DNA from: Rhodoferax sp. PAMC 29310
GTDB lineage: Bacteria; Pseudomonadota; Gammaproteobacteria; Burkholderiales; Burkholderiaceae_C
Assembly (NCBI RefSeq): GCF_017948265.1
Contig: NZ_CP072852.1
Location: 1,116,001-1,180,000 of the forward strand
Length of the DNA: 64,000 nucleotides
Direction: 5' to 3'
Positions within the stretch are counted from its first letter, which is position 1, and each line of letters begins with the position of its first letter. Below, one piece after another: positions 3,382-25,492 of this stretch. The notes beneath the pieces are model-generated. The model was not told the origin of the DNA. It saw only the letters and a program-made list of their open reading frames with translations, and did no database searches. Made by a program: the position numbers and the translations under genes.

Positions 3382-3382
3382 A

Positions 3383-10784: not shown

Positions 10785-12131
10785 ATGCCCTCTAAAAAAC
10801 TCACCACCAACAACAATAGCTCAGCGGTGCCCAGCAGCCGCTTAGGGCGCTTGATGCGCTTGGGCACTATGGCCACTGGTGTGGCTGGCAATATGCTGGT
10901 AGCAGGTGCGCAACAGCTTGCCCAGGGTAAGCGCCCGAAACTCAGTGATCTGCTGCTCACTCCGGCAAATGCGCACAAGATCACACAACAGCTCTCCCAA
11001 ATGCGCGGCGCTGCGATGAAGCTGGGACAACTGATCTCGATGGATGCAGGCGATTTGTTGCCGCCCGAGATAGCTGCTGTTTTGGCACGCTTGCGCTCGG
11101 ATGCGCACGCCATGCCAGAGCGCCAGCTGCGAGCTGTGCTAACTGCCAATTGGGGTGCCCATTGGCAGCAGCGCTTTGCGTCTTTTTCTTTCACGCCCAT
11201 CGCGGCTGCCTCCATAGGCCAAGTTCACCGCGCAACCACCCCAGACGGACGCGACCTGGCCATAAAAATTCAGTACCCGGGTGTGCGTAAAAGCATCAGC
11301 AGCGATGTGAACAATGTGGCCTCACTGCTGCGCTTATCGGGTCTGCTGCCTAAAACATTGGACATAGCGCCGCTGCAGCTGCTGGCCAAACGCCAACTGC
11401 GCGAGGAGGCCGACTACGAAGCGGAGGGCATGCACCTGCAGCGCTTTGCCCAGTTGCTGGCCGACGTCCCAGAGTTTGTTGTGCCCGTATTGCACGCCGA
11501 CTTGACGACCAAAAATGTGTTGGCCATGTCTTTTGTAGCGGGGGTGCCCGTGGAATCCATGGCGGACGCACCGCAAGCCGAGCGTGACCGACTGCTGAGC
11601 CTGCTGGTGGGTCTCATGTTCCGCGAGTTGTTTGAGTTTGGACTCATGCAAACCGATCCTAACTTTGCCAACTACCGCTACGACCCTCAGAGCCAGCAGC
11701 TGATCTTGCTGGACTTTGGCGCCACCCGCAGTTTCACGCCGGCCTTCGGACAGGCTTACAAACAGCTGATGCGCGCAACCTTGGCGGGCGAGCGCGACGC
11801 CATGGCGCAAGCCGGTCTGGCCATTGGTTACTTCGATGGCAGAACCCAGGCCAAGCACCAAATGGCCGTGCTTGACCTGTTTGAGATCGCGCTCGAACCT
11901 CTCCGGTTTGACGGTGCTTTTGACTTTGACTGTACCGACATGGCCCCGCGCCTGCGTGAGGCCGGGTTGGCGCTAGGTCTGGACCGGGACTTTTGGCATA
12001 TTCCACCTATCGAAGCCCTGTTCTTGCATCGCAAGCTGGGAGGCTTGTTTCTGCTGGCGGCGCGGCTCAGGGCGCGAGTGAATGTGCAGCAACTTGCCAT
12101 GCCGTATTTGCGACCCGACGTCTTACGTTGA
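10785..12131 (+). CDS. ABC1/AarF (UbiB-like) atypical kinase
   Basis: 448 aa member of the ABC1/ADCK protein-kinase-like family. Features are the KxGQ-type motif MKLGQLISMDAGDLLPPEIA (near residue 80), the A-rich loop AAASIGQVHRA, the lysine strand LAIKIQYPGVR, the catalytic-loop equivalent GLMQTDPNFANYRY, and the metal-binding LLDFGATRSF. Related proteins support ubiquinone synthesis or lipid-linked functions through ATPase activity. The protein lacks the C-terminal membrane helices of E. coli UbiB, so it is more like the AarF paralogues found outside ubi operons. The next gene begins 3 bp after its stop. Confidence 0.82.
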   Translation: MPSKKLTTNNNSSAVPSSRLGRLMRLGTMATGVAGNMLVAGAQQLAQGKRPKLSDLLLTPANAHKITQQLSQMRGAAMKLGQLISMDAGDLLPPEIAAVLARLRSDAHAMPERQLRAVLTANWGAHWQQRFASFSFTPIAAASIGQVHRATTPDGRDLAIKIQYPGVRKSISSDVNNVASLLRLSGLLPKTLDIAPLQLLAKRQLREEADYEAEGMHLQRFAQLLADVPEFVVPVLHADLTTKNVLAMSFVAGVPVESMADAPQAERDRLLSLLVGLMFRELFEFGLMQTDPNFANYRYDPQSQQLILLDFGATRSFTPAFGQAYKQLMRATLAGERDAMAQAGLAIGYFDGRTQAKHQMAVLDLFEIALEPLRFDGAFDFDCTDMAPRLREAGLALGLDRDFWHIPPIEALFLHRKLGGLFLLAARLRARVNVQQLAMPYLRPDVLR

Positions 12132-12134
12132 AGT

Positions 12135-12689
12135 ATGGAAAACAGCGGCCAAACACCTTCAGAAATTCGCCATCGCATCTGGATGGAGCTGGGTCGCGCC
12201 ACCCAAGATCGGCTCCACGCTTGGCGTACTCCTGTACTGGCCACCACCGCCGAGGATGGGCTGCCCGATGCACGCACAGTGGTGCTGCGCGAGGCCGATG
12301 CCAACACAGCCCATCTTCGCTTTTACACCGATGGCCGTAGCGCAAAGATATCCCATCTGTCAGGTCAGCCGCAAGCCGTGCTGGTCTTTTGGAGCAAACG
12401 CTTGAACTGGCAGCTTCGGATGCGGGTGTCCATCACAACACACGCTGCGGGTCCGGTAGTGGATGCCGTTTGGGCGCGCGTCAGTCAATCGGCAGCCGCT
12501 GACGACTATCTGTCGCCATATGCACCTGGGTCAGCACTGTCTGCAGCGACGCCTACCGCTGCACCGTCCAGACACCACCTGGCGGTCTTGAGTGCCGAGG
12601 TGCATGACATCGACTGGCTTGAACTCGCACGGGGCGGCCATCGCCGTGCCAGGCTGGGGGCGGACACCTGGGATTGGCTCACGCCTTAA
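12135..12689 (+). CDS. Pyridoxamine-5'-phosphate-oxidase-like FMN-binding protein
   Basis: 184 aa split-barrel flavoprotein. The segments TPVLATTAEDGLPDARTVVLRE, LRFYTDGRSAKISHL and AVLVFWSKRLNWQLRMR match the Alr4036/PNPOx-like FMN-binding fold. The C-terminal substrate-recognition segment of true PdxH is not obvious, so the substrate is open. It lies 3 bp downstream of the ABC1 kinase gene, implying co-transcription. Confidence 0.78.
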   Translation: MENSGQTPSEIRHRIWMELGRATQDRLHAWRTPVLATTAEDGLPDARTVVLREADANTAHLRFYTDGRSAKISHLSGQPQAVLVFWSKRLNWQLRMRVSITTHAAGPVVDAVWARVSQSAAADDYLSPYAPGSALSAATPTAAPSRHHLAVLSAEVHDIDWLELARGGHRRARLGADTWDWLTP

Positions 12690-12807
12690 GTCACTGCAAG
12701 TGCGTTGCTTCAGCGCAGGGCGAGTTCGAAATCAAACATGTAATTGACGCTGGTGTCCCCGCAGCAGCGGGCTGTGTGTTGCAGGGGGTGTAATGCATGC
12801 GTCTTAG

Positions 12808-13451
12808 GGCAACGCTGAATAAGTCCCTCGATCACACAGGTCGTGGGTAAAGTATGGGTCGTGAAGTAACAGACCCTTGCCATGGCCGCCGACCAAACCT
12901 TTGAGCGCTACCGCAAGCCCACACGGCGCGACGAGTTCTTGAAGACGATACAGGCCATCGTTCCTTGGGTTTCGTTATGCGCCGTCATCGAACCCGACTA
13001 TCCCAAGGCAGGAGACGGGCGACCGCCTACTGGGCTTGAGCGCATGCTGCGCAACCACATCATCCAGCACTGGTTCAATCTGGCGGACCTATATTGCGAG
13101 GATCCCTTTTACGACAGCGCAAGCCTTCGCCGCTTTGTCGGCATTGACCTTGGGCGAGAAAGCGTTCCTGACGCCACCACGATGTTGAAGTTCCGCAAAC
13201 TCCTGCATGACAACCACCTCGGTGAGGCCTTGTTCGCCCAAGTAGGTCCTGTTTTGCAACGCAAAGGCTCCAAGGTCAATACCGGCACCATGGTGGATGC
13301 AACCCAAATTGGCGCACCCAGCTCAACGAAGAACGCAGATAAAGCACGTGACGCCGAGTTGGCTTTTGGTCGTCTGAGACGGATAGGCAGCACTTGTGGG
13401 CTGCGCGCGCATTTCCTGAAAGCTAAACGAAAGACTCCTTCGTGTCTTTGA
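12808..13451 (+). mobile_element. Truncated IS5-family insertion sequence
   Basis: TTAG at 12804-12807, matching the YTAR target of IS5-family elements, is followed at 12808 by GGCAACGCTGAATAAGTCC, whose GAATAAGT core resembles IS5-type ends. A transposase frame starts 74 bp later. The right half of the transposase and the right inverted repeat are not found, so the copy is inactive. Confidence 0.6.
12882..13451 (+). pseudogene. IS5-family transposase, N-terminal part only
   Basis: 190 codons are open. The first 150 or so match IS5-family transposases: an N-terminal DUF772-like region (GRPPTGLERMLRNHIIQHWF, NLADLYCEDPFYDSASLRRF), DATTMLKFRKLL, and then the first catalytic Asp in NTGTMVDATQIGAPSSTKN. 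After NADKARDAE the sequence diverges and no DDE-domain remainder follows, so the second Asp and the Glu are missing. The break lies near 13345-13360. Confidence 0.75.
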
Positions 13452-13909
13452 GAGTCATCCACTTTCAAATCGCCAATGACCGCTTCCGCCCGCATTGCTG
13501 CCCTTCTGCTCCAGCCCATATTTATCCGCTTTGCCAACGCGCCAGAAAATGGCCTGCTTGATGACGCAAAAACCAGCAACGCGGAAAGCCCAATTGCATG
13601 GGCGTTTATCGGATCCTTAAAAATCGATAGCTAGCGACATACGCTGTTGGCGGCGAAAGAATTGACCAAGTAGGTGGAATTTGAGCTTGGTAGCTATTAT
13701 CAACATGCACGAAACCACGAGATTTGCGATGCGGGGTGGCTGTCAGAAGCCATGTGGGGTAGAAGTTCTTCTACGTCGTTTTGATGTGTCGCATCATCAG
13801 CAGACTGGCGTTCCGTCAGCTCATTTTTCACCCTTATCGCAGCCAATTGCGCGGGCCCAGTCGCTCAAGGGCGTGCAGGGGGGACGCCGATCGGCGGTCC
13901 GTATTGTGG
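13452..13909. other. Intergenic stretch between IS5 remnant and the signalling island
   Basis: No convincing gene. It contains the 18-bp block at 13477-13494 shared with 8631-8648 and several short spurious frames. Possibly debris from the insertion that removed the IS5 right half. Confidence 0.4.
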
Positions 13910-14302
13910 TCATATCTCCGCCTTTCGCTTCAGAATAACCTCTATTTTTTTGCCCAACATGGCACTTGTTAAAGGCTTCACGATGTAGCCGTCGGCTCCG
14001 GCTTTGGCGGCTTCGATGATTTTGTCTTTGCGTGCTTCGGCGGTAACCAGCAAGAAAGGGAGGTGTTTGAGCTCGGGCGAGTTGCGTACTGCTTTGAGCA
14101 ACTCCAAACCCGTCATGTTGGGCATGTTCCAGTCACTCACAATAAGTTGGCAGTCTCCAACTTCGAGCTTGCGCAACGCTTCTGCCCCATCTGCAGCTTC
14201 CGAGATGCGGCTAAAACCACTTTCACGCAGCAAACCGGAGATGATGCAGCGCATGGCGACCAAGTCGTCTACAAGCATGTTTTTGTAATTTGAGAAGTCC
14301 AT
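13910..14302 (-). CDS. CheY-like single-domain response regulator
   Basis: 130 aa, receiver domain only. Acidic pair in VDD (residues 11-13), phospho-acceptor Asp57 in LIVSDWNMPNMTGLELL, switch Thr in LLVTAEARK, and Lys in YIVKPLTSA. The DWNMPNMTG sequence is close to chemotaxis CheY. With no output domain it must act by protein contact, for example on a motor, a kinase or a phosphorelay partner. Last gene of a reverse-strand trio; its 240-bp leader carries three perfect hairpins. Confidence 0.88.
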   Translation of the reverse strand: MDFSNYKNMLVDDLVAMRCIISGLLRESGFSRISEAADGAEALRKLEVGDCQLIVSDWNMPNMTGLELLKAVRNSPELKHLPFLLVTAEARKDKIIEAAKAGADGYIVKPLTSAMLGKKIEVILKRKAEI

Positions 14303-14365
14303 GAAATTTTTTGATGTGTGACCAGGCTCAATGCAGCCATTGCACTGACAAAAGAGTTTCTAGAC

Positions 14366-14473
14366 CGGGACATATTTTTGATGTCCCGTAAAGATATCTT
14401 GCGATTTCTATTGCGGTTATCGCAAGCAGGCAGTTGCGCCCGGTCCTAGAAATTTTTTCCTAGGACCGGGCGC
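14366..14473 (-). promoter_or_regulatory. Three tandem perfect hairpins in the leader of the CheY-like gene
   Basis: Stem 1: CGGGACAT (14366-14373) with ATGTCCCG (14381-14388). Stem 2: CTTGCGAT (14398-14405) with ATCGCAAG (14419-14426). Stem 3: GCGCCCGGTCCTAG (14436-14449) with CTAGGACCGGGCGC (14460-14473), a perfect 14 bp. Stem 3 could act as a transcription barrier after the HD-GYP gene, although no U-tract follows on the minus strand. The left flank of stem 1 (TTTCTAGACCGGG) can also pair with CCCGGTCCTAGAAA of stem 3 with one bulge, so alternative folds are possible. Confidence 0.55.
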
Positions 14474-14541
14474 ACCCTATTGATGAACGCTGGCAGGTCG
14501 CACCCCATTGCAAGGCGCGTCATTTTCCTGATCAGCCGTTC

Positions 14542-15681
14542 TCATTGAGCCAATTCAGACTGTTTCAGTTTTTCGAGTAACTCCTCTTCCGTATCGGCGA
14601 ATCGTGATGCAATGCCCTGAAAAACGCCGCCTAACGCGACGAATGCATCCACTAAGTCAGGGTCGAAATGAGACCCCCGTCCAGCTAGGATGATTTGTGT
14701 GGCATCTTGGTGCGACATCCCGTCCTTGTAGACCCGCTTGCTAATGAGTGCGTCGTAAACGTCCGCAATCGCCATCAGTCGGGCGGGAATAGGAATGTCA
14801 TCGCCTTTCAGTCCTTGGGGGTAGCCAGAACCGTCCCATTTTTCGTGGTGTGAATAGACGATCTCCTTGGCGATCTGCAAGAACTCGCTCTGGTCTCCAA
14901 CGAGCGACTGGGCTTTTACGATTGCGTCGTGACCAAGCTTGGGGTGCGCTTTCATCACCTCATACTCGGCCTCCTCGTAGCGGCCAGGCTTGAGAAGAAT
15001 TTTGTCCGGGATGCCGACCTTGCCAATGTCATGAAGCGGAGCGCACTTAAAGATGATGTCCAGGCGTTCCGCGGTTAAATAGCGAGTGAATCTGGGATTG
15101 CTACGAAGATACTGCCCCAGCGCAAAGATGTAGTGCTGTGTTCGCTTCAGATGGTTGCCGGTTTCCGAGTCCCGAATTTCAGCCAGCGAGGCAAGTGCCA
15201 ACAAAGTGACCTCCTGCAGTGCAGCCAGTTGTCTGCTGTGCCGGAGTGCCTCATGATTCATGATATCGGTATGAGCGCGATGATCGCGTCGCACAACGGA
15301 ATCAGCCAGATGCGCTCTGATGCGGGCCAACATGGTGCCAGGATGGATGGGCCGCGGAATATAGTCAACCGCACCCAAGTCGAACATCAATTGTTGTTGA
15401 TCCGCGTCCGCCTCCCGTGTCAAGAAGATAACGGGGATTTGGCGTGTGTGATCTGCCTGTTTGAGTTGGAGACAAACTTCAAACCCCTGATTACCTGGGC
15501 GGATCGTGTCGATCAAAACAAGGTCTGGCTGTTCGTCGCTGCACACCTGTTGCACGCTACGCCCCCCCGACACAGCCTTGACGGTGTAGCGCGAACTGAG
15601 GAGTTCGCCTATGCGGAGCAGGCTTTTATCAGAGTTCTCGAGAATCAAAACGGTGGGCTTGGCTGCTTGAAAGATTTCCAT
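14542..15681 (-). CDS. Response regulator with HD-GYP c-di-GMP phosphodiesterase domain
   Basis: 379 aa, RpfG-like. The N-terminal receiver (about 10-130) has Asp58 in DLVLIDTIRPG, with Thr and a Lys-like position following. The C-terminal HD-GYP domain carries the intact catalytic motifs LHDIGKVGIPDKIL, AHPKLGHD, YSHHEKWDGSGYPQGLKG and MAIADVYDAL. Intact HD and GYP motifs predict hydrolysis of cyclic di-GMP, controlled by phosphorylation. Middle gene of the reverse trio, 84 bp after the single-domain regulator at 15766. This gene gives the island a second-messenger output. Confidence 0.93.
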   Translation of the reverse strand: MEIFQAAKPTVLILENSDKSLLRIGELLSSRYTVKAVSGGRSVQQVCSDEQPDLVLIDTIRPGNQGFEVCLQLKQADHTRQIPVIFLTREADADQQQLMFDLGAVDYIPRPIHPGTMLARIRAHLADSVVRRDHRAHTDIMNHEALRHSRQLAALQEVTLLALASLAEIRDSETGNHLKRTQHYIFALGQYLRSNPRFTRYLTAERLDIIFKCAPLHDIGKVGIPDKILLKPGRYEEAEYEVMKAHPKLGHDAIVKAQSLVGDQSEFLQIAKEIVYSHHEKWDGSGYPQGLKGDDIPIPARLMAIADVYDALISKRVYKDGMSHQDATQIILAGRGSHFDPDLVDAFVALGGVFQGIASRFADTEEELLEKLKQSELAQ

Positions 15682-15765
15682 TGCTTATTTCCGGTGGCAT
15701 TCAATTAAAAAGTGCTGCGGTCAACGGTGGTGTCCTTAACTGCAGTATTCACATGGCGTCTTGGC

Positions 15766-16146
15766 TCATTTCAGCTTGTTGCTGACCCAAGCCATAATCT
15801 CCGCGGGGCTAAAAGGCTTGATGAAATAGGCATCAGCGCCGCGCTTTTGAGCCTCTTCCTGATCAGCGATTTGACCTCGGGCGCTGAGTATGGCCACGAG
15901 GGTACCGCTGGTCGTTGGATTCGCTTTGATCTCCGACAGCACGTCCAATCCATCGATGGCGCCGGGCATCATCACGTCAAGCAAAACCAATCTGGGCTGA
16001 TGGTGTCGCACCGCCTCCAATGCGCTGGCGCCGTCTTCAGCCTCGACGATGCTGTAGCGGTCATCAAGCGTGACCTGAAGCAAGCGCCGAATATCACTGT
16101 GGTCATCCACAATGAGAATTGGCCGTATGGTTGACGGGACGGTCAT
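15766..16146 (-). CDS. Single-domain response regulator
   Basis: 126 aa receiver. Acidic residues in LIVDDHSDIR, phospho-acceptor Asp57 in LVLLDVMMPGAIDGLDVL, Ser in AILSARGQ and Lys in YFIKPFSPAEI. It closely resembles the single-domain regulator at 17633-18010 (shared LLDVMMPGAIDG and a KPFSP motif), so the two are probably paralogues in a phosphorelay or competing phosphate sinks. First gene of the reverse trio, facing the pseudokinase gene across a 371-bp divergent region. Confidence 0.9.
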   Translation of the reverse strand: MTVPSTIRPILIVDDHSDIRRLLQVTLDDRYSIVEAEDGASALEAVRHHQPRLVLLDVMMPGAIDGLDVLSEIKANPTTSGTLVAILSARGQIADQEEAQKRGADAYFIKPFSPAEIMAWVSNKLK

Positions 16147-16297
16147 TTTTTTGTCTCCTTCATGGTGAGGCCACTAGGGCCAAACCTCATACGCATGCGA
16201 TTGTGCATAGTTACTGCCGGCTTCACGCGACGGCTGACCGTTGACGAGTTCTTTCGGCTGCACATTTAGATATTCGACTTATTTTTTTTAAAATATT

Positions 16298-16315
16298 TAT
16301 CAAATTTATCATATT
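16298..16315. promoter_or_regulatory. Tandem 9-bp AT-rich direct repeat, left site
   Basis: TATCAAATT immediately followed by TATCATATT. The reverse complement of this arrangement recurs at 16475-16492 near the other end of the same divergent region. The site lies about 150 bp upstream of the reverse-strand receiver gene. Head-to-tail AT-rich repeats are the kind of site bound by BldC/excisionase-type HTH proteins, one of which is encoded at 23653-24291; that link is inference. Confidence 0.55.
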
Positions 16316-16474
16316 TAAACTAAGGCTGCAAGCAATTTTTTGACGGGGGAGGCACCGATGTGACCTTAATTTCGACAACAGGTCATGCATAAGCTCGGGA
16401 TCCAATCAGGTCGCGGTCACCCGCGGGCTAAATCTTTTTAGATGGGCCAATTGCCAGCGAAATATCTGTTGCTT

Positions 16475-16492
16475 AATTTGATAAATATGATA
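16475..16492. promoter_or_regulatory. Tandem 9-bp AT-rich direct repeat, right site (inverted)
   Basis: AATTTGATA immediately followed by AATATGATA. On the minus strand this reads TATCATATT-TATCAAATT, the same two 9-mers as the left site. It ends 25 bp before the ATG of the pseudokinase gene, where a bound protein would overlap the promoter or leader. The rest of the 371-bp region is AT-rich and contains no gene. Confidence 0.55.
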
Positions 16493-16517
16493 GATTTTAA
16501 AGAAATCTAAAAATCAA

Positions 16518-17633
16518 ATGGAAAAACCCTACCACCAGCCCTCAGTAGATGCACTCTTTGATGCGGTGCCTTGGCCCGTTATCACCCTTGCACTGAACGG
16601 AAAAGTAACGTATGCCAATGTGGCCGCCAGGCAACATCCCGGTAATCCGGTGCAAGAAATGAATGGCAGGCCTTCCATCGCATCATCGATCCGTGATTTT
16701 CTGACTGGTAAAGTGAAACTACCCCATGCCCTCGAATTAGAGTGGGCCAACGGCCACCGTCTCAGAGGTCAGTTCATGCCCGGCCCCGCCGGCATTGGTG
16801 GGCGTGAAATATCATTCATTGCGACCCCGACCGCCTCCGATGTGGAGGCCAGTGGACCCAAGCGAATGAGCTTGAGTGACATCATCGACCTGCTCCGTCA
16901 GGAACTACAGTCACCTTTCAAGAGGCTCTCGGACACGCTGGGGGATTTGCCCCAAACGCCACAAAGTGAACGATTGGAAGATGCCGCAAACGCCCTTAAA
17001 GAACGCTTGCACAGATTGAGCGATTTGGTCGCTATTTTCGGCGACGAAGTCATCGTCGCCAATGAGCGCGTTGAATTGGCACACATGGTTCAAACCATCT
17101 GCAAAGAACTGGAACCGCGCGCCACCAGCATGAAGATTCGATTCGAAGTGGCAGAACCGAATCAGACCTTGCCCGCCATTTACGGCAGCGCGCAACTGAT
17201 ACGCCGTGCACTTCATGAGTGCATTGACAACGCACTGACGCACTCCCAGCGAGACTTAAATCGCCAGCAATTCATAGCCGTGAAAATCAACTACATGATG
17301 ACTGGCGAGCACGTCCTCATCACTTTACGCAACCAGGCGGAGCTTACCGCTGAAACTCGTGGCATCGAAATTCGAGAACCCTTCGAAAAGACTTCAAAAA
17401 GAAATACATCCCCTTCAAATGGGCGGCTGGGACTGCCGCTCGTGCAGCGCATTGTGGAGTTGCACGGGGGCCGCATGCGCGTTTCAACAGTGGATGATGA
17501 CGAAGTCAAAGTCATGATCGAATTCCCAATCGGCGCGCCCTTGCGAGGCCAAGCCAAACTTGATGCGGCGCAGACCCAGCGTTACGCAACAGATCTTGCA
17601 TTGCTGATGTCACGTCGAAAAAAGGAAAAATAA
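16518..17633 (+). CDS. Histidine-kinase-like protein lacking the phospho-acceptor His
   Basis: 371 aa, no membrane segment. An N-terminal PAS-like region (about 8-105: DAVPWPVITLALNGKVTYAN) is followed by a degenerate dimerisation helix and a C-terminal HATPase-like domain with N-box ALHECIDNALTHS and G2-type GRLGLPLVQRIVELHGG. In the H-box the expected SHELRTPL is RQELQSPF, putting Gln128 where the phospho-accepting His should be. It is therefore unlikely to autophosphorylate in the usual way and may regulate or scaffold. Its stop overlaps the next receiver gene (TAATG). First gene of the forward operon. Confidence 0.82.
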   Translation: MEKPYHQPSVDALFDAVPWPVITLALNGKVTYANVAARQHPGNPVQEMNGRPSIASSIRDFLTGKVKLPHALELEWANGHRLRGQFMPGPAGIGGREISFIATPTASDVEASGPKRMSLSDIIDLLRQELQSPFKRLSDTLGDLPQTPQSERLEDAANALKERLHRLSDLVAIFGDEVIVANERVELAHMVQTICKELEPRATSMKIRFEVAEPNQTLPAIYGSAQLIRRALHECIDNALTHSQRDLNRQQFIAVKINYMMTGEHVLITLRNQAELTAETRGIEIREPFEKTSKRNTSPSNGRLGLPLVQRIVELHGGRMRVSTVDDDEVKVMIEFPIGAPLRGQAKLDAAQTQRYATDLALLMSRRKKEK

Positions 17634-18010
17634 TGCGCCTCAAAGCCCTGATCGTCGATGATCAACCCGATATCAGAAAACTCATTCTGATGACCATGGA
17701 GTGTGAAGACTACGAGTTGCATGAAGCGGAAAACGGCGACGAAGCTTGGCGCCTTGCACAAAGTCTTCGCCCCGCCATCATTTTGTTGGACGTGATGATG
17801 CCTGGTGCCATAGATGGTTATCAGGTCTGCGAAAAAATCAAGGGGGACCCTTACCTCAAAGCAAACACCAAAGTCATTCTGCTAACGGCGAGGGGACAGC
17901 GCACCGACCTTGATCGTGGCAAATCCGCTGGTTGCGACGCTTACCTGGTCAAACCCTTCAGTCCGATAGAGTTGCTGGACACTGTAGACCGTTTAGTGGC
18001 ACAGCCATGA
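17633..18010 (+). CDS. Single-domain response regulator
   Basis: 125 aa receiver. LIVDDQPDIRK, phospho-acceptor Asp53 in IILLDVMMPGAIDGYQVC, Thr in VILLTARGQRTD and Lys in YLVKPFSPIELLD. All functional residues are present. It overlaps the upstream pseudokinase stop by one base and the downstream PhnD-like gene start by four bases (ATGA), so it is translationally coupled on both sides. Closely related to the regulator at 15766-16146. Probable phosphate carrier between the kinases and the outputs of the island. Confidence 0.9.
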   Translation: MRLKALIVDDQPDIRKLILMTMECEDYELHEAENGDEAWRLAQSLRPAIILLDVMMPGAIDGYQVCEKIKGDPYLKANTKVILLTARGQRTDLDRGKSAGCDAYLVKPFSPIELLDTVDRLVAQP

Positions 18011-18888
18011 GCGACTCTGGCGCACCTGACTCCCGTCGTCGCCAGGTGATCAAGGAAGTTGGTGCCGGCCTTGGGATAGGCTTGGTCGCGTGGTCCCCGC
18101 TGCTTACGGCCCGAGCACAAACAGCGCTTCCGGTAAAGAAATGACGGCTGTCCGTTGTGCCGCAGTTGACGCCGGTTGAAATGTCGCGGTACTGGTCGCC
18201 GGTCGTCGCCGCGCTGGGTTTGGCAGGCATCCCGTGTGAGCTTGTCGTGTACCGGACGATTGCCGAATTTGAAGCCGAGTTCAACGAGGGCCGTGCCGAT
18301 ATCGTGTACCTGAATCCCTACCACATGGTTATGGCCAGTCGCTCAAAGAGATACAAAGCGCTCGTGCGTGACGCTCGTGGCTTGGAGGGCGTGCTGGTTG
18401 TAAAACGTGACGGGCCAGTCGGAAACGTCGCGCAACTGGAGCACCAGACGATCTCATTTCCGGCACCCAATGCATTCGGGGCCAGTCTGTATGTGCGCTC
18501 GGTGTTGGACCGTCACTACCAGATTTCGTTCAAAGCTCAGTATGACGGCACGCATCGCAATGCCGTGCGTCAGGTTCTTATCGGCGAGTCCGCTGCAGCC
18601 GGGGTGATCAAGACTACTTTGGAGATGGAGCCGCCAGACGTTCAAAATGATCTGCGCGTGGTCTACACAACACCGGCGTTGTCGCCCCACCCTGTCGCAG
18701 CTCATCCTCGAGTGCCTGTGGCCGTTCGCAACAAAATTATCGAGACCTTGTTGTCGCTGGCGGCCAATCCCGAGACGAAATCTGTCATGAGGAATATCCA
18801 GATACCTAATCCGGTTAGGGCGGACTACGACGTCGACTATGCGCCGCTCGAGGCACTTGGCATAGAAAAATATGTCATCGCAGACTAG
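18007..18888 (+). pseudogene. PhnD-like periplasmic binding protein with in-frame TGA
   Basis: The ATG at 18007 starts a Tat-like signal sequence (SRRRQVIKEVGAGLGIGLVA, then a likely AQ cleavage) and hits an in-frame TGA at 18142-18144. The same frame then continues as a 244-residue PhnD/TakP-like binding domain from a GTG at 18157, including LTPVEMSRYWSPVVAALG, YLNPYHMVMA, FPAPNAFGASLYVRS and THRNAVRQV. A TGG-to-TGA change would explain it. As written, either the secreted protein is lost or a leaderless version starts at GTG. The intact homologue would be a periplasmic sensor subunit for the kinase encoded next. Confidence 0.7.
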
Positions 18889-21508
18889 GCTTGTGATGAA
18901 ACTTCTTGCACGATTGAATCGGAAATGGCGTCGTGTTTACAGCCTGAACACCATTCTTCTATTCAGTGCCTTTGTCGTTTTGGTCCTGGCTGCCACCGCC
19001 TATAGCACCGTCTTACACCACCAGTTGGAGACCGAAACCTTGAAGAGGGCAAAAAGTTGGGCCGACTCGGTCGCAGAATTGGTGGCGACAGCCAACGCCA
19101 CTGCCCTGATCGTCAACGACATGGCGGTCATCGAAACCAATTTACGCGGTGTCGCATGGCTACCAAGCATTCAAAACGTCGCAATTTTCCGGGCCGATGG
19201 TGGCATGTTGATGCAGTTGTCCCGAACGGGCAACCAGATCGAATCCCAATTTGCAGGCGACGAACGCATGGACTTGCCCCACACCGGGGTCAAGGCGCTG
19301 CCAAGTGGCATCAAGGACACCTTTTACGAGACGTGGTCAGGGGTAGATGCCGGCGCAACGTTTCCCAAGGCATGGGTTCGGATTCAGTTCAGCTTGCAGG
19401 AACGAAATGAGGAGATGAATCTCTTAACAAGCCAGATCCTTCTTGACACCATTCTTTTAATCGGAGGCGTCTTGCTGGGTCTGCATCTGATCGTTTCCAG
19501 GGCTATTCGCCCCCTTCGAGATTTATCCGTCTTTGCAGAGAAGACGCCCTCAAATATGGGAGCCCAAATCACGACCGATGGCTGCTGTTTCGAGGTGAAT
19601 CAGCTCGCATTGGCGCTAAACCAGGCAAGCCATAGCGCAGCCGAGCAGATTGGCCGAATGGGGGCCATCCTGAATACAGCCGCCGAGGCCATCGTGGGTC
19701 TGGATGCAAAAGGTGTCATCGTCACAGTGAATCAAGCGGCCATCAGCTTTTTCGGACGCGCTGAAGACGCACTGATAGCACTGTCGTTTGATGCTTGCAT
19801 CCCTGGCCTCGGGTTGCCCGCCCTGCAGAAAATGTTTGACGACTCCGCAGGTGGTTACGCCGGCGCTAGTCGTGTTGTGCGCCACGATTTATTTGGCAGT
19901 CGCGCGGATGGCACCTTATTTCCAGTCGAGGTTTCACTGGGAAGGGTTGAGAGAGACAACGCACTGTGCTATGTGTGCATTTTTCGCGACGTCACCGACG
20001 AACGAGCATCTCAGGGATTTACCGAGTTGTATGAGCGTGCGCTTGACTGCAGCCACAACGCGGTGTTCATTACCAATGGGGCGCTTTCTCACCAACCGAT
20101 CGTGTATGTCAATGAGGCGTTTCAGTCGCTAGAGGGAGAGCCGGCGTACAAAGTGCTGGGAACAAGCTTGGCTGATCGGATTGGAATGTCGTCGGATGCA
20201 GCCGGTCGCCGAGAGTTGACCCGCGCTGTGGCTGAGCAACGCAATGCCAATGTCACCTTGTTCACAGACCTGGCCGACGGAAAACAGAGAGTTACCGAAA
20301 TCTCGCTGTCCCCCGTCCTCTCGAGCGGTGGCGTCCTGACGAATTTCATCGGTATTGTTTCGGATGTGACTGCCCGGGTGCAGGCTGTCGCGGCGATTGC
20401 CGAGCGGCGAGCCCAGCTTGATGCCATCTTCAGCCTGAGTCCCGATGGTTTTGTGGTGTTTGACTCCAATGAAAAAATGGTCTTTGCCAACCCTGCCTTT
20501 GAACGAATGACGGGGTTGAGCTGGGTGACTGAGTCGGCTCTTCCGACACTGGATGACTTTTTAGTGGCAATGACCTTGCTGTGCGATGACGCCCAGATCT
20601 TGCCATGCATCCAGCTAGACGCCGAAGATGGCATGCCATGGCGGGCACGCCTTCAGTTGATACGCCCGCAAATGCGTGTGTTGATGGCAGAGTCGCGTCG
20701 CAATACGGGTGGTCAAGATGAGACGATCCTGTATTTTCGTGATATCACCCATGAGGACGAAGTTGATCGGATAAAGAGCGAGTTTCTTGCGGCGGCCGCG
20801 CATGAACTTCGGACCCCCATGGTCAGCATCTTTGGCTTCACCGAACTACTTCTCAAGCGTCAATTTACCGAAGAGCGCCGTGCGGACATGCTAGAGACGA
20901 TTCACCGTCAATCTGGTTTTTTGATAAAGATGCTTAACGAGTTGCTCGATCTTTCGCGTATTGAATCCCGTCTCGGACTTGACCTGGAAATCGCTGCACA
21001 TTCTCTGGAGGAGCTGGTATCAAACAGTGTCAAAGGCCTCATGCGAACAGACACCGATCGTCAGGTGCTTGTTGGCGTGGTGCCCAAGGTCGCTGTGCTG
21101 ATCGATCCCGAAAAAATGCAATTAGTGATGAACAACCTATTAAGCAATGCGTTCAAATATTCACCCGGCGGGGGCGACGTGACATTGAATGCCAGGCTGG
21201 ATCAAGCTGATTCAGTTCACTACGCGGTGATCGACATTCGCGATCACGGAATCGGTATGACCCCAGAACAGATCAACAGGGCGTTTGATCGCTTTTACCG
21301 TGCGGATGCCTCAGGGCACATTCCGGGCACCGGCCTGGGCTTGAGTATGGTCAAAGAGGTCGTTGGTCTGCACAAAGGCCGTGTCGAACTCGCAAGCGAG
21401 TCTGGCAAGGGGACCACGGTCAGTGTGTGGACACCGTTGGCAAATGCAGTTCGAGTTACGGGCGAGAGAAGCGTCGCAGGAGCGGGAGAAGTCCATGAAT
21501 TCCAATGA
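18872..21508 (+). CDS. Membrane sensor histidine kinase with three PAS-like domains
   Basis: 878 aa. TM1 (about 26-44), an extracytoplasmic domain (about 45-187, CHASE8-like in appearance), TM2 (about 188-208) and a short HAMP-like linker. Three PAS-type modules follow at about 262-375, 385-500 and 510-625. HisKA has FLAAAAHELRTPMVS with His644; the HATPase shows NNLLSNAFKYSP, DHGIGMT and GTGLGLSMVKE. It overlaps the PhnD-like gene by 17 bp (an ATG at 18896 just after its stop is an alternative), suggesting that the binding protein feeds the periplasmic domain. The kinase core is strongly similar to those at 22065 and 24329. Confidence 0.9.
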   Translation: MSSQTRLVMKLLARLNRKWRRVYSLNTILLFSAFVVLVLAATAYSTVLHHQLETETLKRAKSWADSVAELVATANATALIVNDMAVIETNLRGVAWLPSIQNVAIFRADGGMLMQLSRTGNQIESQFAGDERMDLPHTGVKALPSGIKDTFYETWSGVDAGATFPKAWVRIQFSLQERNEEMNLLTSQILLDTILLIGGVLLGLHLIVSRAIRPLRDLSVFAEKTPSNMGAQITTDGCCFEVNQLALALNQASHSAAEQIGRMGAILNTAAEAIVGLDAKGVIVTVNQAAISFFGRAEDALIALSFDACIPGLGLPALQKMFDDSAGGYAGASRVVRHDLFGSRADGTLFPVEVSLGRVERDNALCYVCIFRDVTDERASQGFTELYERALDCSHNAVFITNGALSHQPIVYVNEAFQSLEGEPAYKVLGTSLADRIGMSSDAAGRRELTRAVAEQRNANVTLFTDLADGKQRVTEISLSPVLSSGGVLTNFIGIVSDVTARVQAVAAIAERRAQLDAIFSLSPDGFVVFDSNEKMVFANPAFERMTGLSWVTESALPTLDDFLVAMTLLCDDAQILPCIQLDAEDGMPWRARLQLIRPQMRVLMAESRRNTGGQDETILYFRDITHEDEVDRIKSEFLAAAAHELRTPMVSIFGFTELLLKRQFTEERRADMLETIHRQSGFLIKMLNELLDLSRIESRLGLDLEIAAHSLEELVSNSVKGLMRTDTDRQVLVGVVPKVAVLIDPEKMQLVMNNLLSNAFKYSPGGGDVTLNARLDQADSVHYAVIDIRDHGIGMTPEQINRAFDRFYRADASGHIPGTGLGLSMVKEVVGLHKGRVELASESGKGTTVSVWTPLANAVRVTGERSVAGAGEVHEFQ

Positions 21509-21526
21509 AAAATTGAGGAAATTTAT

Positions 21527-22078
21527 ATGTACGGATTGGTAAACAGAGCGGTTGAACAGTTGGTCGTTTCGCTAAAGGGAGAGCCCGGGTGGCGCGGCGT
21601 CTGTGCGCATGCCGGTGTCTCCTCAGACGGCTTTGTCGCCACAAAAAGTTACGATGACAAATTAACCTTCGATCTCGTCAACGCGGTTAGTGTTCGTATG
21701 GGCTTACCCGCAGAAACAGTTTTGGAGGCCTTTGGTGAGTACTGGATTACTTACACGGCGGCAGAAGGCTATGAGTCCATCCTGTCCTCAAGTGGCAGCA
21801 ACCTGCGCGAATTTCTGGACAACCTGAATAAGATGCATGATCGGGTAAGGACTATTTTTACACACCTGTCCATCCCCCAATTCCGCGTGGAGGACATCTC
21901 CCACGATGAGTACCACCTCTTTTACCGATCAACACGTGATGGGCTGGCGCCCATGGTCATCGGCCTGCTTAAAGGATTGGGAAAACGGTTTAATCAAAAG
22001 ATTGAAGTCAGTCAGACCTTTGCCAAGACAAATGTGAACGACGAAGATATCTTCTTGGTTCGCCATGTCGCAGTTTGA
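21527..22078 (+). CDS. H-NOX heme nitric oxide/oxygen sensor protein
   Basis: 183 aa stand-alone H-NOX (HNOB) domain. Full-length family pattern: MYGLVNRAVEQLVV at the N-terminus, EAFGEYWITYTAAEGY, proximal heme ligand His104 in NKMHDRV, and the heme-propionate motif Y-x-S-x-R as YRSTR (Tyr133, Ser135, Arg137) followed by GLAPMVIGLLKGLGKRF. Such proteins bind NO, and some bind O2, and regulate a partner kinase or cyclase. No obvious distal Tyr could be assigned by eye, so NO selectivity is a guess. An ATG 18 bp after the big kinase gene is used; its 3' end overlaps the HNOBA kinase by 14 bp. Confidence 0.95.
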   Translation: MYGLVNRAVEQLVVSLKGEPGWRGVCAHAGVSSDGFVATKSYDDKLTFDLVNAVSVRMGLPAETVLEAFGEYWITYTAAEGYESILSSSGSNLREFLDNLNKMHDRVRTIFTHLSIPQFRVEDISHDEYHLFYRSTRDGLAPMVIGLLKGLGKRFNQKIEVSQTFAKTNVNDEDIFLVRHVAV

Positions 22079-23618
22079 TACCGGCGAGACAACCGACAAG
22101 GCAATCAGTTTGACGCCTCCATCGCTGAGTGGCAGTGCGTTCGTCCGTGCATTTCCTTTTTACTTGGAACTCGATCGGAACTTGCACGTTCTGTCAGTTG
22201 GGCCATCCCTTCACAAGGCCTGTCCGGCCCTTGAAGCTGGATCTGATTTTTCAGATTTTTTTCAGGTCAGCCTTTCGACCAACCTGAAAAACAGCAAAGA
22301 ATGGCATGCACACACAGGTCAGTTGATCATGTTGAAGGGACTAGGCTCAACGCCCCTGACCTTGCGAGGCAGCGCGGAAAGTGGCGAGGATGGATCCTTG
22401 CTGTTACTGGTAAGTCCGGTGATTCAAACACGGCATGAAAAGCAACAGTTGGGTCTGACGCTTAATGACTTCGCCAATCATGACAACGTCAGTGACACCT
22501 TGCTTCTGGCTGATACGACCCGCATGGCTGCGAAGGACGCCGAACGCATGGCAGAGCGTTTGAATGATCGCACGATGCAAATGACCGCCATCATGGAGTT
22601 GAGTGACAACGGCACCGCCTATTTCGGAGCAGACTCCATGCTCCGTCACACCAACTCCGCGTTGCGCAAAATGTTGGATATTGGCGAGGCAGAGGCCTTC
22701 GATCTGGATATCGACGCATTTGACTCCCGGGTGAGCGCCCTGCTCAGACAGTCAGACGATGGCGTCAGCCACCCGCAGTCGCGCTTGATCGCGTCGACCC
22801 AAGATGAGGTCGCAGGAATTCGCATTGAATTGGCAAGACCCAGGGTCGCGGTGATTCATGTCAAATCTGCTCGTACAAAGGACGGTGGATGGGTGTTCTA
22901 TTTCAGGGACATCACTCATGAAGACGCCGTTGATCGAATGAAAAGTGAGTTTCTGGCGGCGGCGGCGCACGAACTTCGCACCCCCATGGTGAGCGTCCTG
23001 GGATTCATAGAACTTCTCATTGAACGAAAGTTTTCTGACGAGCGCCGCGCAGACATGCTTGGGATCATTCACCGGCAATCCAAATTGATGGTGAAAATGA
23101 TCAATGAGCTGCTCGACCTGGCCCGCATCGAAAGTGAACGTGGACTTGAATTCCAGATAACTGCCCATCCGCTAAATGTGATTCTGGACACCACCGTCAA
23201 GGGACTCATGCGCCGTGACACTGACAGCCAAGTCATCGTTGGTGAGGTTCCCCATGCTTTGGTCATGGTCGATCCCGAAAAAATGAAACAGGCCGTGAGC
23301 AACTTGTTGAGCAACGCATTCAAGTACTCCCCAAGTGGTGGGGAGGTGACATTGACCGCAACGTTGGATGTGCATGAGACGCGTGAGTTCGCTGTCATCG
23401 AGATCATGGACCGAGGCATCGGAATGACCCCTTCACAACTGGTCCGCGCGTTTGAACGCTTTTACAGGGTCGATGCTTCCGGCAAAGTTCCCGGTACAGG
23501 CTTGGGGCTTAGCATAGTGAAAGAGCTGGTTGACCTGCACCATGGCCGGATTGAACTAGAGAGTGAGGCGGGACAGGGCACCACTGCCCGTCTTTGGATA
23601 CCGCTTGCGCCGCGTTAG
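22065..23618 (+). CDS. Cytosolic HNOBA-domain histidine kinase (H-NOX partner)
   Basis: 517 aa without a membrane segment. Residues about 25-165 form an HNOBA (heme-NO-binding-associated) domain: AFPFYLELDRNLHVLSVGPS, LLLLVSPVI, LGLTLNDFANHDNVSDTLLL and a coiled-coil-like AKDAERMAERLNDR. A PAS-like segment (about 170-280) follows, then HisKA with FLAAAAHELRTPMVS (His302) and an HATPase with SNLLSNAFKYSP and GTGLGLSIVKE. HNOBA is the usual interaction and signal module paired with H-NOX, as in soluble guanylate cyclase. The 14-bp overlap with the H-NOX gene supports a direct sensor-kinase pair. All catalytic motifs are intact. Confidence 0.93.
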   Translation: MSQFDTGETTDKAISLTPPSLSGSAFVRAFPFYLELDRNLHVLSVGPSLHKACPALEAGSDFSDFFQVSLSTNLKNSKEWHAHTGQLIMLKGLGSTPLTLRGSAESGEDGSLLLLVSPVIQTRHEKQQLGLTLNDFANHDNVSDTLLLADTTRMAAKDAERMAERLNDRTMQMTAIMELSDNGTAYFGADSMLRHTNSALRKMLDIGEAEAFDLDIDAFDSRVSALLRQSDDGVSHPQSRLIASTQDEVAGIRIELARPRVAVIHVKSARTKDGGWVFYFRDITHEDAVDRMKSEFLAAAAHELRTPMVSVLGFIELLIERKFSDERRADMLGIIHRQSKLMVKMINELLDLARIESERGLEFQITAHPLNVILDTTVKGLMRRDTDSQVIVGEVPHALVMVDPEKMKQAVSNLLSNAFKYSPSGGEVTLTATLDVHETREFAVIEIMDRGIGMTPSQLVRAFERFYRVDASGKVPGTGLGLSIVKELVDLHHGRIELESEAGQGTTARLWIPLAPR

Positions 23619-23652
23619 GGCCCATTATTCGTCACATGGCCGCCAGAGGCCA

Positions 23653-24291
23653 CTACAGCTTGTCTAGTCCCTTGCCAGCCCTTTGGACATGCATAGCCTT
23701 GACCAGTTGCTCCAGTTTTGGAAAATCTACCGGCTTTTGAAAAAAGATGACATCTTCAGGCAAGCCGCCCCGCTCCTTGATGTCGCTCAGTCCCAAAGCC
23801 GAAACCACGATCAGCTTGAGGGCAGCAAATCCTGAGCCCGGTTTTTTAAGTGCACGAAGCATTTCAAACCCATCCATGCCTGGCATGCTCAAGTCAGTAA
23901 TGACGACATCCGGCTGTCTTTTGCCGATACACAGTAGGCCCTCAAAGCCATTGACGGCCAATATAAGCTCCACAGGGAAATTCCAACCGTCGATAACCAT
24001 CGAGAACAGTTCCAACAACGAGGGGTCATCCTCCACAACCAGGATTTTTGTTGGCCGGATCTTTGCGCTGGTTTCACTACCGGCGGATTGCTCGGGCGCG
24101 AGCACCAAGGCCCGCTCTGACATCAATTTTTCAACCGCACTTCGTGCGATTCTGCGGTGGCCACCCGCCGTGCGCCAAGCAGGCAGCACGCCAGATTCGA
24201 CCCAAAGTTGAACTGTTCGCACGGCGACGCCAAGAGTTGCACCGGCCTCTCGGGTGGTCATCAATGCATCATTTGCTGCAATTTTTCTCAT
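23653..24291 (-). CDS. Response regulator with N-terminal MerR/excisionase-type HTH
   Basis: 212 aa with reversed domain order. Residues about 10-58 are a BldC/excisionase-like winged HTH (MTTREAGATLGVAVRTVQLW, RTAGGHRRIARSAVEKLM); residues about 82-205 are a receiver with VVEDD and phospho-acceptor Asp133 in VVITDLSMPGMDGFEML, Ser in VVSALG and Lys in FFQKPVDF. Typical DNA-binding regulators have the receiver first. It is the only DNA-binding protein in the island and thus the candidate transcription regulator of it. It lies 37 bp downstream of a kinase gene on the same strand and converges with the HNOBA kinase. Confidence 0.88.
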   Translation of the reverse strand: MRKIAANDALMTTREAGATLGVAVRTVQLWVESGVLPAWRTAGGHRRIARSAVEKLMSERALVLAPEQSAGSETSAKIRPTKILVVEDDPSLLELFSMVIDGWNFPVELILAVNGFEGLLCIGKRQPDVVITDLSMPGMDGFEMLRALKKPGSGFAALKLIVVSALGLSDIKERGGLPEDVIFFQKPVDFPKLEQLVKAMHVQRAGKGLDKL

Positions 24292-24328
24292 CGTTCCATT
24301 TCAAATTTACATCGCAAAATGCGGGTGG

Positions 24329-25492
24329 TCAGTCTTGCTCAAGGGGAAACGGTTGGGACAAAAGAAAGTCTGACGCCGTTGGAAACCAAAGGGTGACTGA
24401 AGTTCCCTGCCCTAGCTGGCTTTCGATCTCCACATGGCCATCCTGCAATTCAGTAATTTCTTTGACCAGGCTCATTCCCAATCCAGTTCCAGGAATTTTG
24501 CCAGAGGGATCGACTCGAAAAAAACGATTGAAAACTCTTGCCGCGTCTTCTGGCGTCAACCCGAGGCCATGATCCGTGACGCGAATACCCACTTCTTGCA
24601 CGGCACCCAGATCCCTGACCAGGGTGTCGAGTTCGATGGCACCACCCTGAGGCGAGTACTTGAAAGCATTCGAGAGCACGTTCAGCAAAGCCTGAGAAGT
24701 CTTGTCGGGGTCCACAAGAATTCGCTGTTTTTCATGGTCAAACTTAACCGAGACTTGTCGCTTGTCTCCCTTGATCAGCAAGCCGCTGATGGTTTGCCTG
24801 ACGATACTGTCCACCCTGCATTGCTGCCGGTGAAAATCTTTTCCCTGTCGAGCCTCGATTCTGGAAAGGTCCAGCAACTCATTGATCAATTCGGCAAGCA
24901 AAAGCCCCTGCCTATGCACCGTTTGCAGGAGATTACGTTGTTTTTCAGGCGCCATGACCCGGTCGATCATCAGCTCAGTGAAGCCAAGAATGCTGGACAG
25001 GGGTGTCCGCAACTCATGGGCCGCAGTCGCGAGAAACTCACTTTTCATGCGGTCGACTTCGAATTCAACGGTGATGTCTCGAAAATGGAGCACCAGGTCT
25101 CCGTCTGAAGTCACCCTGGCGTTGATCTGGAGTACCGCCGGTTTGGGTGAGGCCAGTTTGATGACATTGGTGAGACCCCGCATCTGCCCAATCACGCCAA
25201 AACGCATTTCGTCCAGAATGGCATCAATCGGTCTGCGAGTGGGCTCGTCCGCGTCAAGCATGGCGCACAAGTGGCTTTCGATTGAGGTCAGGGTAAGCGG
25301 GCATTTCCAGTCTGGATCAATGCCGAGCATCTGCAGCAGAGTGCGATTCACGTAAGTGACGGCGCCCTTGGCTTCGGCGTGAATGACGCCGCTATCACTC
25401 ATCTCCAAGGTAGCGAGCAACTGTTCATTACGCCTGTTCAGGAGCGTCAATTCGACTTGACTTGTCGAAGGCTGCGCAGAGTCTTTTTTCAT
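24329..25492 (-). CDS. Cytosolic PAS-domain sensor histidine kinase
   Basis: 387 aa, no membrane segment. A PAS-like domain (about 22-140: NEQLLATLEMSDSGVIHAE, VTYVNRTLLQMLG) precedes HisKA with FLATAAHELRTPLSS (His159) and HATPase motifs LNVLSNAFKYSP, DHGLGLT and GTGLGMSLVKE. The kinase core is paralogous to those at 18872 and 22065. Pairs with the HTH-receiver protein encoded 37 bp downstream, probably in one transcript. The 163-bp upstream region is AT-rich and contains TATCGAATT, one mismatch from the 9-mer at 16298. Confidence 0.9.
   Translation of the reverse strand: MKKDSAQPSTSQVELTLLNRRNEQLLATLEMSDSGVIHAEAKGAVTYVNRTLLQMLGIDPDWKCPLTLTSIESHLCAMLDADEPTRRPIDAILDEMRFGVIGQMRGLTNVIKLASPKPAVLQINARVTSDGDLVLHFRDITVEFEVDRMKSEFLATAAHELRTPLSSILGFTELMIDRVMAPEKQRNLLQTVHRQGLLLAELINELLDLSRIEARQGKDFHRQQCRVDSIVRQTISGLLIKGDKRQVSVKFDHEKQRILVDPDKTSQALLNVLSNAFKYSPQGGAIELDTLVRDLGAVQEVGIRVTDHGLGLTPEDAARVFNRFFRVDPSGKIPGTGLGMSLVKEITELQDGHVEIESQLGQGTSVTLWFPTASDFLLSQPFPLEQD

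What the first reader, a model, noticed from the sequence alone, without database searches (positions are those of the whole stretch)
13910..25492. Compact H-NOX-linked multi-kinase signalling island with a c-di-GMP output
Seen: one H-NOX, three intact and one His-less kinase-like protein, five receiver proteins, one HD-GYP regulator with intact catalytic motifs, and one PhnD-like binding protein, all contiguous. Known: in Shewanella and Vibrio, H-NOX controls a kinase that phosphorylates c-di-GMP-active and DNA-binding regulators. Inference: this island joins a heme gas input, a periplasmic ligand input and a third cytosolic PAS input onto a shared set of receivers, with both HD-GYP and DNA-binding outputs. 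The combination with HNOBA as the H-NOX partner and a pseudokinase is one I do not recognise as described.
Basis: partly seen in the sequence, partly recalled or inferred. Interest (0 to 1): 0.82.

Follow-up and report, generated by a model that had tools for sequence, protein, structure and literature searches.

The report
Pseudokinase–receiver hub with swappable sensor kinases
A bacterial gene cluster that looked like a nitric-oxide sensing island turns out to be built on a recurring pair, a dead histidine kinase and a small receiver protein, beside which different sensors (here including a nitric-oxide sensor) are found; this suggests an unusual wiring in which the dead kinase reads the receiver instead of phosphorylating it.

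Summary
The genes are there as described: H-NOX, three intact kinases, a His-less kinase, five receiver proteins (one with HD-GYP), a PhnD-like protein. Two were misjudged: a stop codon interrupts the PhnD-like frame before its domain, and the HD-GYP protein's receiver has lost conserved residues.

H-NOX is not the organising element. Of 24 family genomes with the His-less kinase, 20 loci were laid out: all hold it directly followed by a small receiver; an HK1-type kinase comes next in 18; an HTH-receiver lies nearby in 12. An HNOBA kinase is present in 4 (H-NOX weak in one), PhnD in 1. A same-genus genome carries the core beside hrpA without H-NOX or its kinase. The His-less kinase is a family: in 79 homologues Asp replaces His in 64, and none has the ATP-site Asp.

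The window's HNOBA kinase is a chimera: its input half matches other H-NOX partners, its kinase core falls inside the local HK1 clade (AU p 1e-6). NO and membrane inputs therefore probably share receivers. Best reading: a DivL/DivK-like reader circuit with exchangeable sensors, biochemically unproven. HNOBA kinases followed H-NOX in all ten hand-picked loci from other lineages.

The parts
13910..14302 (-). CheY-like single-domain receiver, phosphorylation residues intact
   Evidence: (best NCBIfam model CheY, 143 bits, cut-off 189); not found on the same-genus island contigs
14542..15681 (-). Receiver-HD-GYP protein; HD-GYP motifs intact, receiver degenerate (E-N for the acidic pair, R for Lys)
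   Evidence: matches at E<=1e-40 in 199 of 399 family genomes, own included
15766..16146 (-). Single-domain receiver (RECb), upstream of and on the same strand as the HD-GYP gene; 63-66% identical to receivers in three loci with HTH-receiver, HK1-type kinase and HD-GYP
16518..17633 (+). PAS + DHp + CA pseudokinase; Q at the phospho-His position, no Asp in the G1 box, conserved C-terminal tail
17633..18010 (+). Single-domain receiver (RECc), start overlapping the pseudokinase stop; D-D-T-K intact; 53-80% identity to the receivers of the 20 loci
18007..18888 (+). PhnD-like periplasmic binding protein gene, interrupted by an in-frame stop at 18142-18144
18872..21508 (+). HK1: kinase with N-terminal hydrophobic segments (by eye), PAS domains, HisKA and HATPase
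21527..22078 (+). H-NOX; heme ligand His and YxSxR present, no Tyr at the presumed distal position
22065..23618 (+). HK2: HNOBA-PAS input half joined to a kinase core of the local HK1 clade
23653..24291 (-). HTH_17 (MerR/excisionase-like) followed by an intact receiver; likely DNA-binding output
24329..25492 (-). HK3: PAS kinase without hydrophobic segment (by eye), upstream of and co-directional with the HTH-receiver gene

Best explanation
The locus is a branched two-component circuit whose fixed core is a catalytically dead kinase (16518-17633) coupled to a single-domain receiver (17633-18010), with an HK1-type kinase and, often, an HTH-receiver (here with HK3). Sensors are exchangeable. In this genome an H-NOX, probably NO-binding, controls an HNOBA kinase whose transmitter belongs to the local HK1 clade, so NO and the HK1 signal set phosphorylation of the same receiver. 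The dead kinase cannot phosphorylate; like Caulobacter DivL with DivK, it most likely docks the (phosphorylated) receiver and passes its state on to the active kinases, which set the HTH-receiver's activity. HD-GYP and its neighbouring receiver give a c-di-GMP arm. Shown from sequence: gene linkage, loss of catalytic residues, the chimera.
For: A pseudokinase directly followed by a receiver in 20 of 20 loci laid out, HK1-type kinase next in 18, H-NOX plus HNOBA kinase in that place in the other 2. In 79 homologues: Asp at the His position in 64, His in 3, no Asp at the G1 position; sharp gap to ordinary kinases (41%, then 26% identity, in the best 120 of 134 listed); conserved C-terminal tail; the model keeps PAS, DHp hairpin and CA-like fold, mean pLDDT 79.6. 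HK2 core 69% and 66% identical to the HK1 cores of the same-genus genome and the window, 56% to the best other H-NOX kinase core, whereas its input half is 46% identical to that kinase and 28% to the best-scoring HK1; AU test rejects holding it with that kinase, p 1e-6. Same-genus island with HK1 and HTH-receiver abutting and no H-NOX. DivL lacks kinase and phosphatase activity and reads DivK~P, with its PAS domains adding phospho-specificity (PMC4211667, sections 12 and 14 read).
Against: No biochemical data. The two nearest pseudokinase homologues (83%, 73%) and the H-NOX-linked one of L027 keep His, so the family is not uniformly His-less and the Q here may be recent. The profile matches ordinary kinases better than DivL (4q20, E 3.7e-11, 16th of 61). 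H-NOX mostly occurs without the pseudokinase: of the 80 loci found by H-NOX, 5 showed it within the fetched stretch at BLAST E<=1e-8, and of 10 family genomes with strong H-NOX 4 hold it, 3 beside H-NOX. HK2 tracks HK1 in the window, but not in L180, L182 or L038, which hold both kinds; L028 is unresolved. The HTH-receiver was not seen in 8 of 20 loci, of which some stretches are short.
Confidence: 0.42

Rival explanations
1. The dead kinase works by pairing with the active kinases (RetS-like heterodimer) and blocks or tunes them; the receiver next to it is an ordinary substrate and is not read by it.
For: It keeps a DHp hairpin and CA-like fold; RetS structures are among the profile hits (6dk7, E 1.8e-8); an HK1-type kinase is next in 18 of 20 loci.
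Against: The tightest neighbour is the receiver (20 of 20; gaps of -3 to 65 bases in the 18 loci where the ORF ends are clear), not HK1. How RetS acts is recalled, not looked up.
Confidence: 0.25
2. Each kinase is insulated with its own receiver (HK3 with the HTH-receiver, HK1 with one receiver, HK2 with another), and the genes are clustered because they move together.
For: HK3 and HTH-receiver form a separate co-directional pair, also in the same-genus genome and in G274 and G405; low G+C from 14 to 26 kb and a transposase fragment upstream.
Against: HK1 and HK2 cores fall in one clade with the HK1 cores of related loci and have identical residues at three DHp positions recalled as specificity positions (H+7, H+11, H+12: V, G, F; HK3 has S, G, F), read.
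Confidence: 0.18
3. One reading: an H-NOX-centred NO to c-di-GMP switch comparable to HnoX-HnoK-HnoB, with HD-GYP as the direct output.
For: H-NOX, a kinase and an HD-GYP protein with intact motifs are present; HD-GYP recurs in 6 of 20 loci.
Against: H-NOX in 4 of 20 loci, one weak; the HD-GYP receiver lacks the acidic pair and Lys, so direct phospho-control is doubtful; no EAL domain in the 11 proteins scanned.
Confidence: 0.1
4. The island is decaying in this strain: interrupted PhnD, degenerate receiver and His-to-Gln are all loss, and little of it signals.
For: In-frame stop; the two nearest pseudokinase homologues keep His.
Against: No other interruption was seen among the eleven frames; absence of the G1 Asp is shared by all 79 homologues; H-NOX and the three active kinases keep their domains.
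Confidence: 0.05

Closest known systems
DivL-DivK-CckA-CtrA (Caulobacter)
   Same: PAS-bearing pseudokinase without the phospho-His, a single-domain receiver, an active kinase, a DNA-binding receiver (DivL: outline and sections 12 and 14 of PMC4211667; the rest of the pathway partly recalled)
   Different: Asp or Gln instead of Tyr; G1 Asp absent; pseudokinase and receiver are adjacent genes; its own C-terminal tail; profile no nearer to DivL than to ordinary kinases
H-NOX followed by an HNOBA kinase (Alr2278-type H-NOX; cyanobacteria and other lineages)
   Same: HNOBA kinase directly after H-NOX (10 of 10 hand-picked loci); best solved relative of the H-NOX is Alr2278
   Different: Here the kinase core groups with the neighbouring HK1 core
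HnoX-HnoK-HnoB-HnoD (Shewanella)
   Same: H-NOX as auxiliary sensor of a kinase with c-di-GMP proteins (PMC8846402 passages)
   Different: No EAL output here; HD-GYP catalytic motifs intact; pseudokinase-receiver core
NosP-NosK-NosR (Burkholderia)
   Same: NO sensor, kinase and receiver-HD-GYP protein (PMC12570481 passages)
   Different: Sensor is FIST, not H-NOX; there the HD-GYP motif is degenerate, here its receiver is
H-NOX/HqsK feeding a shared quorum-sensing relay (Vibrio)
   Same: NO-regulated kinase joins other sensor kinases on a common phospho-acceptor (PMC6759604 passages)
   Different: Hybrid kinase and LuxU there; separate receivers and a pseudokinase here

Membership tests
H-NOX | HNOB domain with proximal His and YxSxR | tested here: met
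   PF07700 E 8e-46; H104, P117, Y133, S135, R137 invariant in the 30 aligned of 957 matches
H-NOX | NO-selective (lacks the distal residues of O2-binding members) | tested here: inconclusive
   V at 9 and P142 five residues after the YxSxR Arg; the O2-binding residues Trp-9, Asn-74, Tyr-140 are from PMC1435932 passages, the spacing is recalled, Asn-74 was not placed; no spectra
H-NOX plus HNOBA kinase pair | HNOBA kinase gene adjacent to H-NOX | tested here: met
   PF07701 49 bits, cut-off 23.4; the genes overlap
Shewanella Hno system | EAL phosphodiesterase output HnoB | tested here: not met
   No EAL among the island's 11 proteins; that HnoB is an EAL protein is recalled, PMC8846402 calls it a PDE
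DivL family | Non-His at the phospho-acceptor position of a PAS-DHp-CA protein | tested here: met
   Q128 here; of 79 homologues 75 have another residue than His, 3 have His, 1 a gap; 52 of 55 aligned rows lack His
DivL family | Closer to DivL than to ordinary kinases | tested here: not met
   DivL 4q20 ranks 16th of 61 profile hits
DivL-like function | Binds the phosphorylated single-domain receiver, no kinase or phosphatase activity | not testable with these tools
   Only indirect: adjacency and residue loss
HD-GYP phosphodiesterase | HD and HHExxDGxGYP motifs | tested here: met
   Positions 217 and 278 of 14542-15681
Response regulator (HD-GYP protein's receiver) | Acidic pair, Asp, Thr/Ser, Lys | tested here: not met
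   E-N, D, T, R. Of six homologues aligned, five keep the acidic pair; Lys is kept in one, R in four, Y in one, so R alone need not mean inactive
PhnD-like sensor binding protein | Uninterrupted secreted protein | tested here: not met
   In-frame stop at 18142-18144

The most novel reading that the evidence does not exclude
An apparently separate, family-wide case of reversed two-component signalling: an Asp-for-His pseudokinase that reads a dedicated receiver and lets NO, membrane and cytosolic kinases be swapped onto one circuit, in this lineage by joining a new sensor half to the local kinase core.
Probability: 0.3. Interest if true: 0.75.

Novelty: new variant of a known kind. Interest (0 to 1): 0.52.

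Why it matters
The DivL authors wrote that the extent to which nature uses reversed signalling warrants further investigation (PMC4211667). A pseudokinase family with 79 matches in the protein search, and a receiver beside it in all 20 loci laid out, makes that testable in a different group of bacteria. The HNOBA-HK1 chimera is also a natural experiment in rewiring: a new sensor seems to have entered an existing circuit by using the local transmitter.

Tried and rejected
H-NOX-centred reading: rejected because H-NOX is optional. HNOBA partner as novelty: rejected (ten loci picked by hand from L040-L106, nine from other phyla and one Pseudomonadales MAG; loci whose next gene gave no kinase match, such as L050, L057 and L070, were not scanned). 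HK2 simply inherited with H-NOX: rejected for the core, kept for the input half. Tracking of HK1 by HK2 as a general rule: not seen in L180, L182 and L038; L028 unresolved; L032 not testable, its HK2 was dropped as a long branch. Whether the same-genus genome lost H-NOX or the window gained it: not resolved; the HK2 core branches outside the HK1 pair of the two genomes, which fits loss, but that order is weakly supported. Iyer et al. 2003 could not be read; it is recalled, and seen as a citation in PMC6759604. Paper searches listed nothing that I recognised as describing this combination; I saw titles and abstract starts, and opened five papers (PMC8846402, PMC4211667, PMC1435932, PMC12570481, PMC6759604) in part. 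Fold search with the pseudokinase model (first 50 of 1035 seen) listed ordinary kinases, RetS, NifL and phytochromes and did not discriminate.

Rows dropped: before the second tree five duplicate rows and two long branches were left out of the 52. The AU pair was chosen after the first tree was seen. Of 24 genomes with the pseudokinase at E<1e-20 (own excluded), 20 were laid out; G323 was seen as L003 and L027 (not in the 20); G387, G298 and G324 were not. L186 and L036 are the same locus (G135, Ideonella paludis). In L179 the receiver follows a second pseudokinase, not the one by which the locus was chosen. In L172 and L173 the mechanical ORFs overlap, so no gap is given and the receivers' single-domain nature is not proven there. 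HD-GYP labels under 60 bits (L170, L183, L184, L185) were not counted; they may be receiver matches. A2 holds the window protein, 39 of the 79 homologues and 15 locus translations. One of the 79 (P0214) is partial.
Full report
What is there. The window lies at 1,116,001-1,180,000 of a one-contig 4.59-Mb genome. G+C is 51-56% in the 2-kb bins from 14 to 26 kb and 55-62% in the others, and a truncated transposase (PF05598) lies at 12882-13451. Two parts are weaker than stated. The PhnD-like gene is interrupted: the frame that starts at 18007 with an RRR-containing signal-like sequence meets a TGA at 18142-18144, before the binding domain. The HD-GYP protein keeps its catalytic motifs, but its receiver shows E-N for the acidic pair and R for Lys; of six homologues aligned there, five keep the acidic pair and one keeps Lys.

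H-NOX and its partner. The H-NOX keeps the heme His and YxSxR and has Pro at the presumed distal Tyr position, which suggests an NO sensor. Its best solved relative is Alr2278. In ten hand-picked loci of other lineages the next gene is an HNOBA kinase in 10 of 10, so the HNOBA partner is ordinary. Among 35 same-genus genomes H-NOX gave one weak match (25% identity); of 399 family genomes 24 had any match, own included, and 10 others one at E<1e-30.

The constant part. The same 399 family genomes were searched with the His-less kinase: 24 besides the own genome match at E<1e-20. Twenty of these 24 loci were fetched and laid out. All 20 hold a pseudokinase directly followed by a receiver like 17633-18010 (53-80% identity); in L179 it is a second pseudokinase that has the receiver. 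Next comes an HK1-type kinase in 18 of 20, in some after one gene (HD-GYP or PhnD); in the other two (L181, L186) the next kinase is the HNOBA kinase with its H-NOX. An HTH-receiver like 23653-24291 lies nearby in 12, an HD-GYP protein (over 100 bits) in 6, a kinase with an HNOBA-type input half in 4 (L180, L181, L182, L186; input halves compared), H-NOX by BLAST in 3 of these and only as a weak partial match in L180, PhnD in 1. H-NOX at E<1e-30 and the pseudokinase co-occur in 4 of 398 genomes where 0.6 would be expected (Fisher p 0.0017, phylogeny ignored); in three of the four they are neighbours, in G424 they lie on different contigs. Seen from the H-NOX side the link is looser: of 80 loci found with H-NOX, five show the pseudokinase in the fetched stretch: a Burkholderiales MAG (L027), a Rubrivivax MAG (L028), Chitinibacter tainanensis (L032), Ideonella paludis (L036) and Parachitinimonas caeni (L038); Rubrivivax albus (L029) shows the receiver without it. 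L027 and L036 are G323 and G135 again.

A near-empty site. A same-genus genome (G469) holds the core on two contigs that break inside the receiver gene. On one, the aminotransferase of window 2230-3381 (80%) is followed by the pseudokinase (49%) and the first 86 residues of the receiver (84%). On the other come the receiver's end, an intact PhnD-like protein (59%), HK1 (59%), HTH-receiver (68%), HK3 (67%) and, after other genes, hrpA (89%). H-NOX, HK2 and the 13910-16146 block were not found there, and HK1 and HTH-receiver abut. These two are the only ones of 60 same-genus genomes, own included, with a receiver at 80% identity or more. That the two contigs join is inferred.

The pseudokinase. 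The protein search gave 134 matches, of which 79 among the 120 listed are members (41-83% identity, one partial) before a drop to ordinary kinases at 26%. At the phospho-His position these 79 have D 64, A 8, H 3, V 1, E 1, N 1 and one gap; at the G1 Asp position R 72, H 5, S 1, Q 1. In the 55-row alignment, which adds 15 more distant loci, 52 lack both residues and the three with His lack the Asp. Those three include the two nearest homologues (83%, 73%), so Gln here may be a recent change. The C-terminus (TGAP..R.. to QAQRYA.DLA.LM.RRK) is highly conserved. The AlphaFold model shows PAS, a DHp hairpin and a CA-like domain with a low-confidence lid (mean pLDDT 79.6, pTM 0.54). By profile it matches ordinary kinases best and DivL at E 3.7e-11.

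The chimera. In trees of kinase cores the window's HK2 falls inside the HK1 clade of the same locus type (7 rows, 100/97; 99/96) and not with other H-NOX kinases; holding it with its best H-NOX counterpart (L027) costs 94 log-likelihood units (AU p 1e-6; pair chosen after the first tree). Core identities: 69% to the same-genus HK1, 66% to the window's HK1, 56% to L027; input half: 46% to L027, 28% to the best-scoring HK1. In a scan of 30-residue steps L027 leads or is level up to residue 300, HK1 leads from 301, most clearly from 361 to 450, and they are level at 481-510. In L180, L182 and L038, which hold both kinds of kinase, this is not seen. HK1 and HK2 share V, G, F at H+7, H+11, H+12, positions recalled as specificity positions; HK3 has S, G, F.

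The HD-GYP arm. Relatives of 14542-15681 are common (199 of 399 family genomes at E<=1e-40). Six of the closer ones were fetched. Five (55-58% identity) lie next to HK1-type kinases, with HTH-receivers and receivers 63-66% identical to 15766-16146 in three of them (L196, L197, L199) and PhnD-like proteins in three (L196, L198, L199); the sixth (L201, 51%) has neither. So this block resembles a sister version of the same kind of system, which supports a c-di-GMP arm, although its own receiver looks impaired.

How it probably works. H-NOX tunes HK2; HK2 and HK1, having related transmitters, set the state of a shared receiver; the pseudokinase reads that receiver and adjusts the active kinases; the HTH-receiver changes transcription and the HD-GYP protein c-di-GMP. 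DivL is the model: it has neither kinase nor phosphatase activity, binds DivK~P, and its PAS domains add phospho-specificity (PMC4211667, sections 12 and 14 read). Steps shown: gene order, residue loss, chimera. Steps inferred: everything about binding, phosphotransfer and direction.

Novelty. The parts are known kinds. What I did not find described in ten paper searches (listings, with five papers opened in part) is the pseudokinase-receiver core with exchangeable sensors, and an H-NOX kinase whose transmitter groups with its neighbour's. The library holds open-licence papers only.

Noticed in passing
18142-18144: In-frame stop inside the PhnD-like gene between signal-like sequence and domain; an intact copy exists in a same-genus genome (L192:129-1001).
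   Followed up: partly
12882-13451: Truncated transposase (PF05598, 189 aa) upstream of the island; with the low G+C it fits mobility of the upstream block.
   Followed up: no
3382-16517: About 13 kb (ornithine cyclodeaminase-like, ADH, DUF1223, DCC1-like, ABC1, PNPOx-like, transposase, CheY, HD-GYP, receiver) lies between two genes that are neighbours in the same-genus genome G469.
   Followed up: partly
L197:8008-12293: Compact gene run HTH-receiver, receiver, HK1-type kinase, HD-GYP with a degenerate receiver: a small sister version of the island.
   Followed up: partly
L179:9120-15232: One genome (G191) holds two pseudokinases of this family about 4 kb apart, only one beside the receiver.
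   Followed up: no
L032:9215-9979: 254-aa protein without a Pfam match at E<=0.01 between an HK1-type kinase and H-NOX in Chitinibacter tainanensis.
   Followed up: partly
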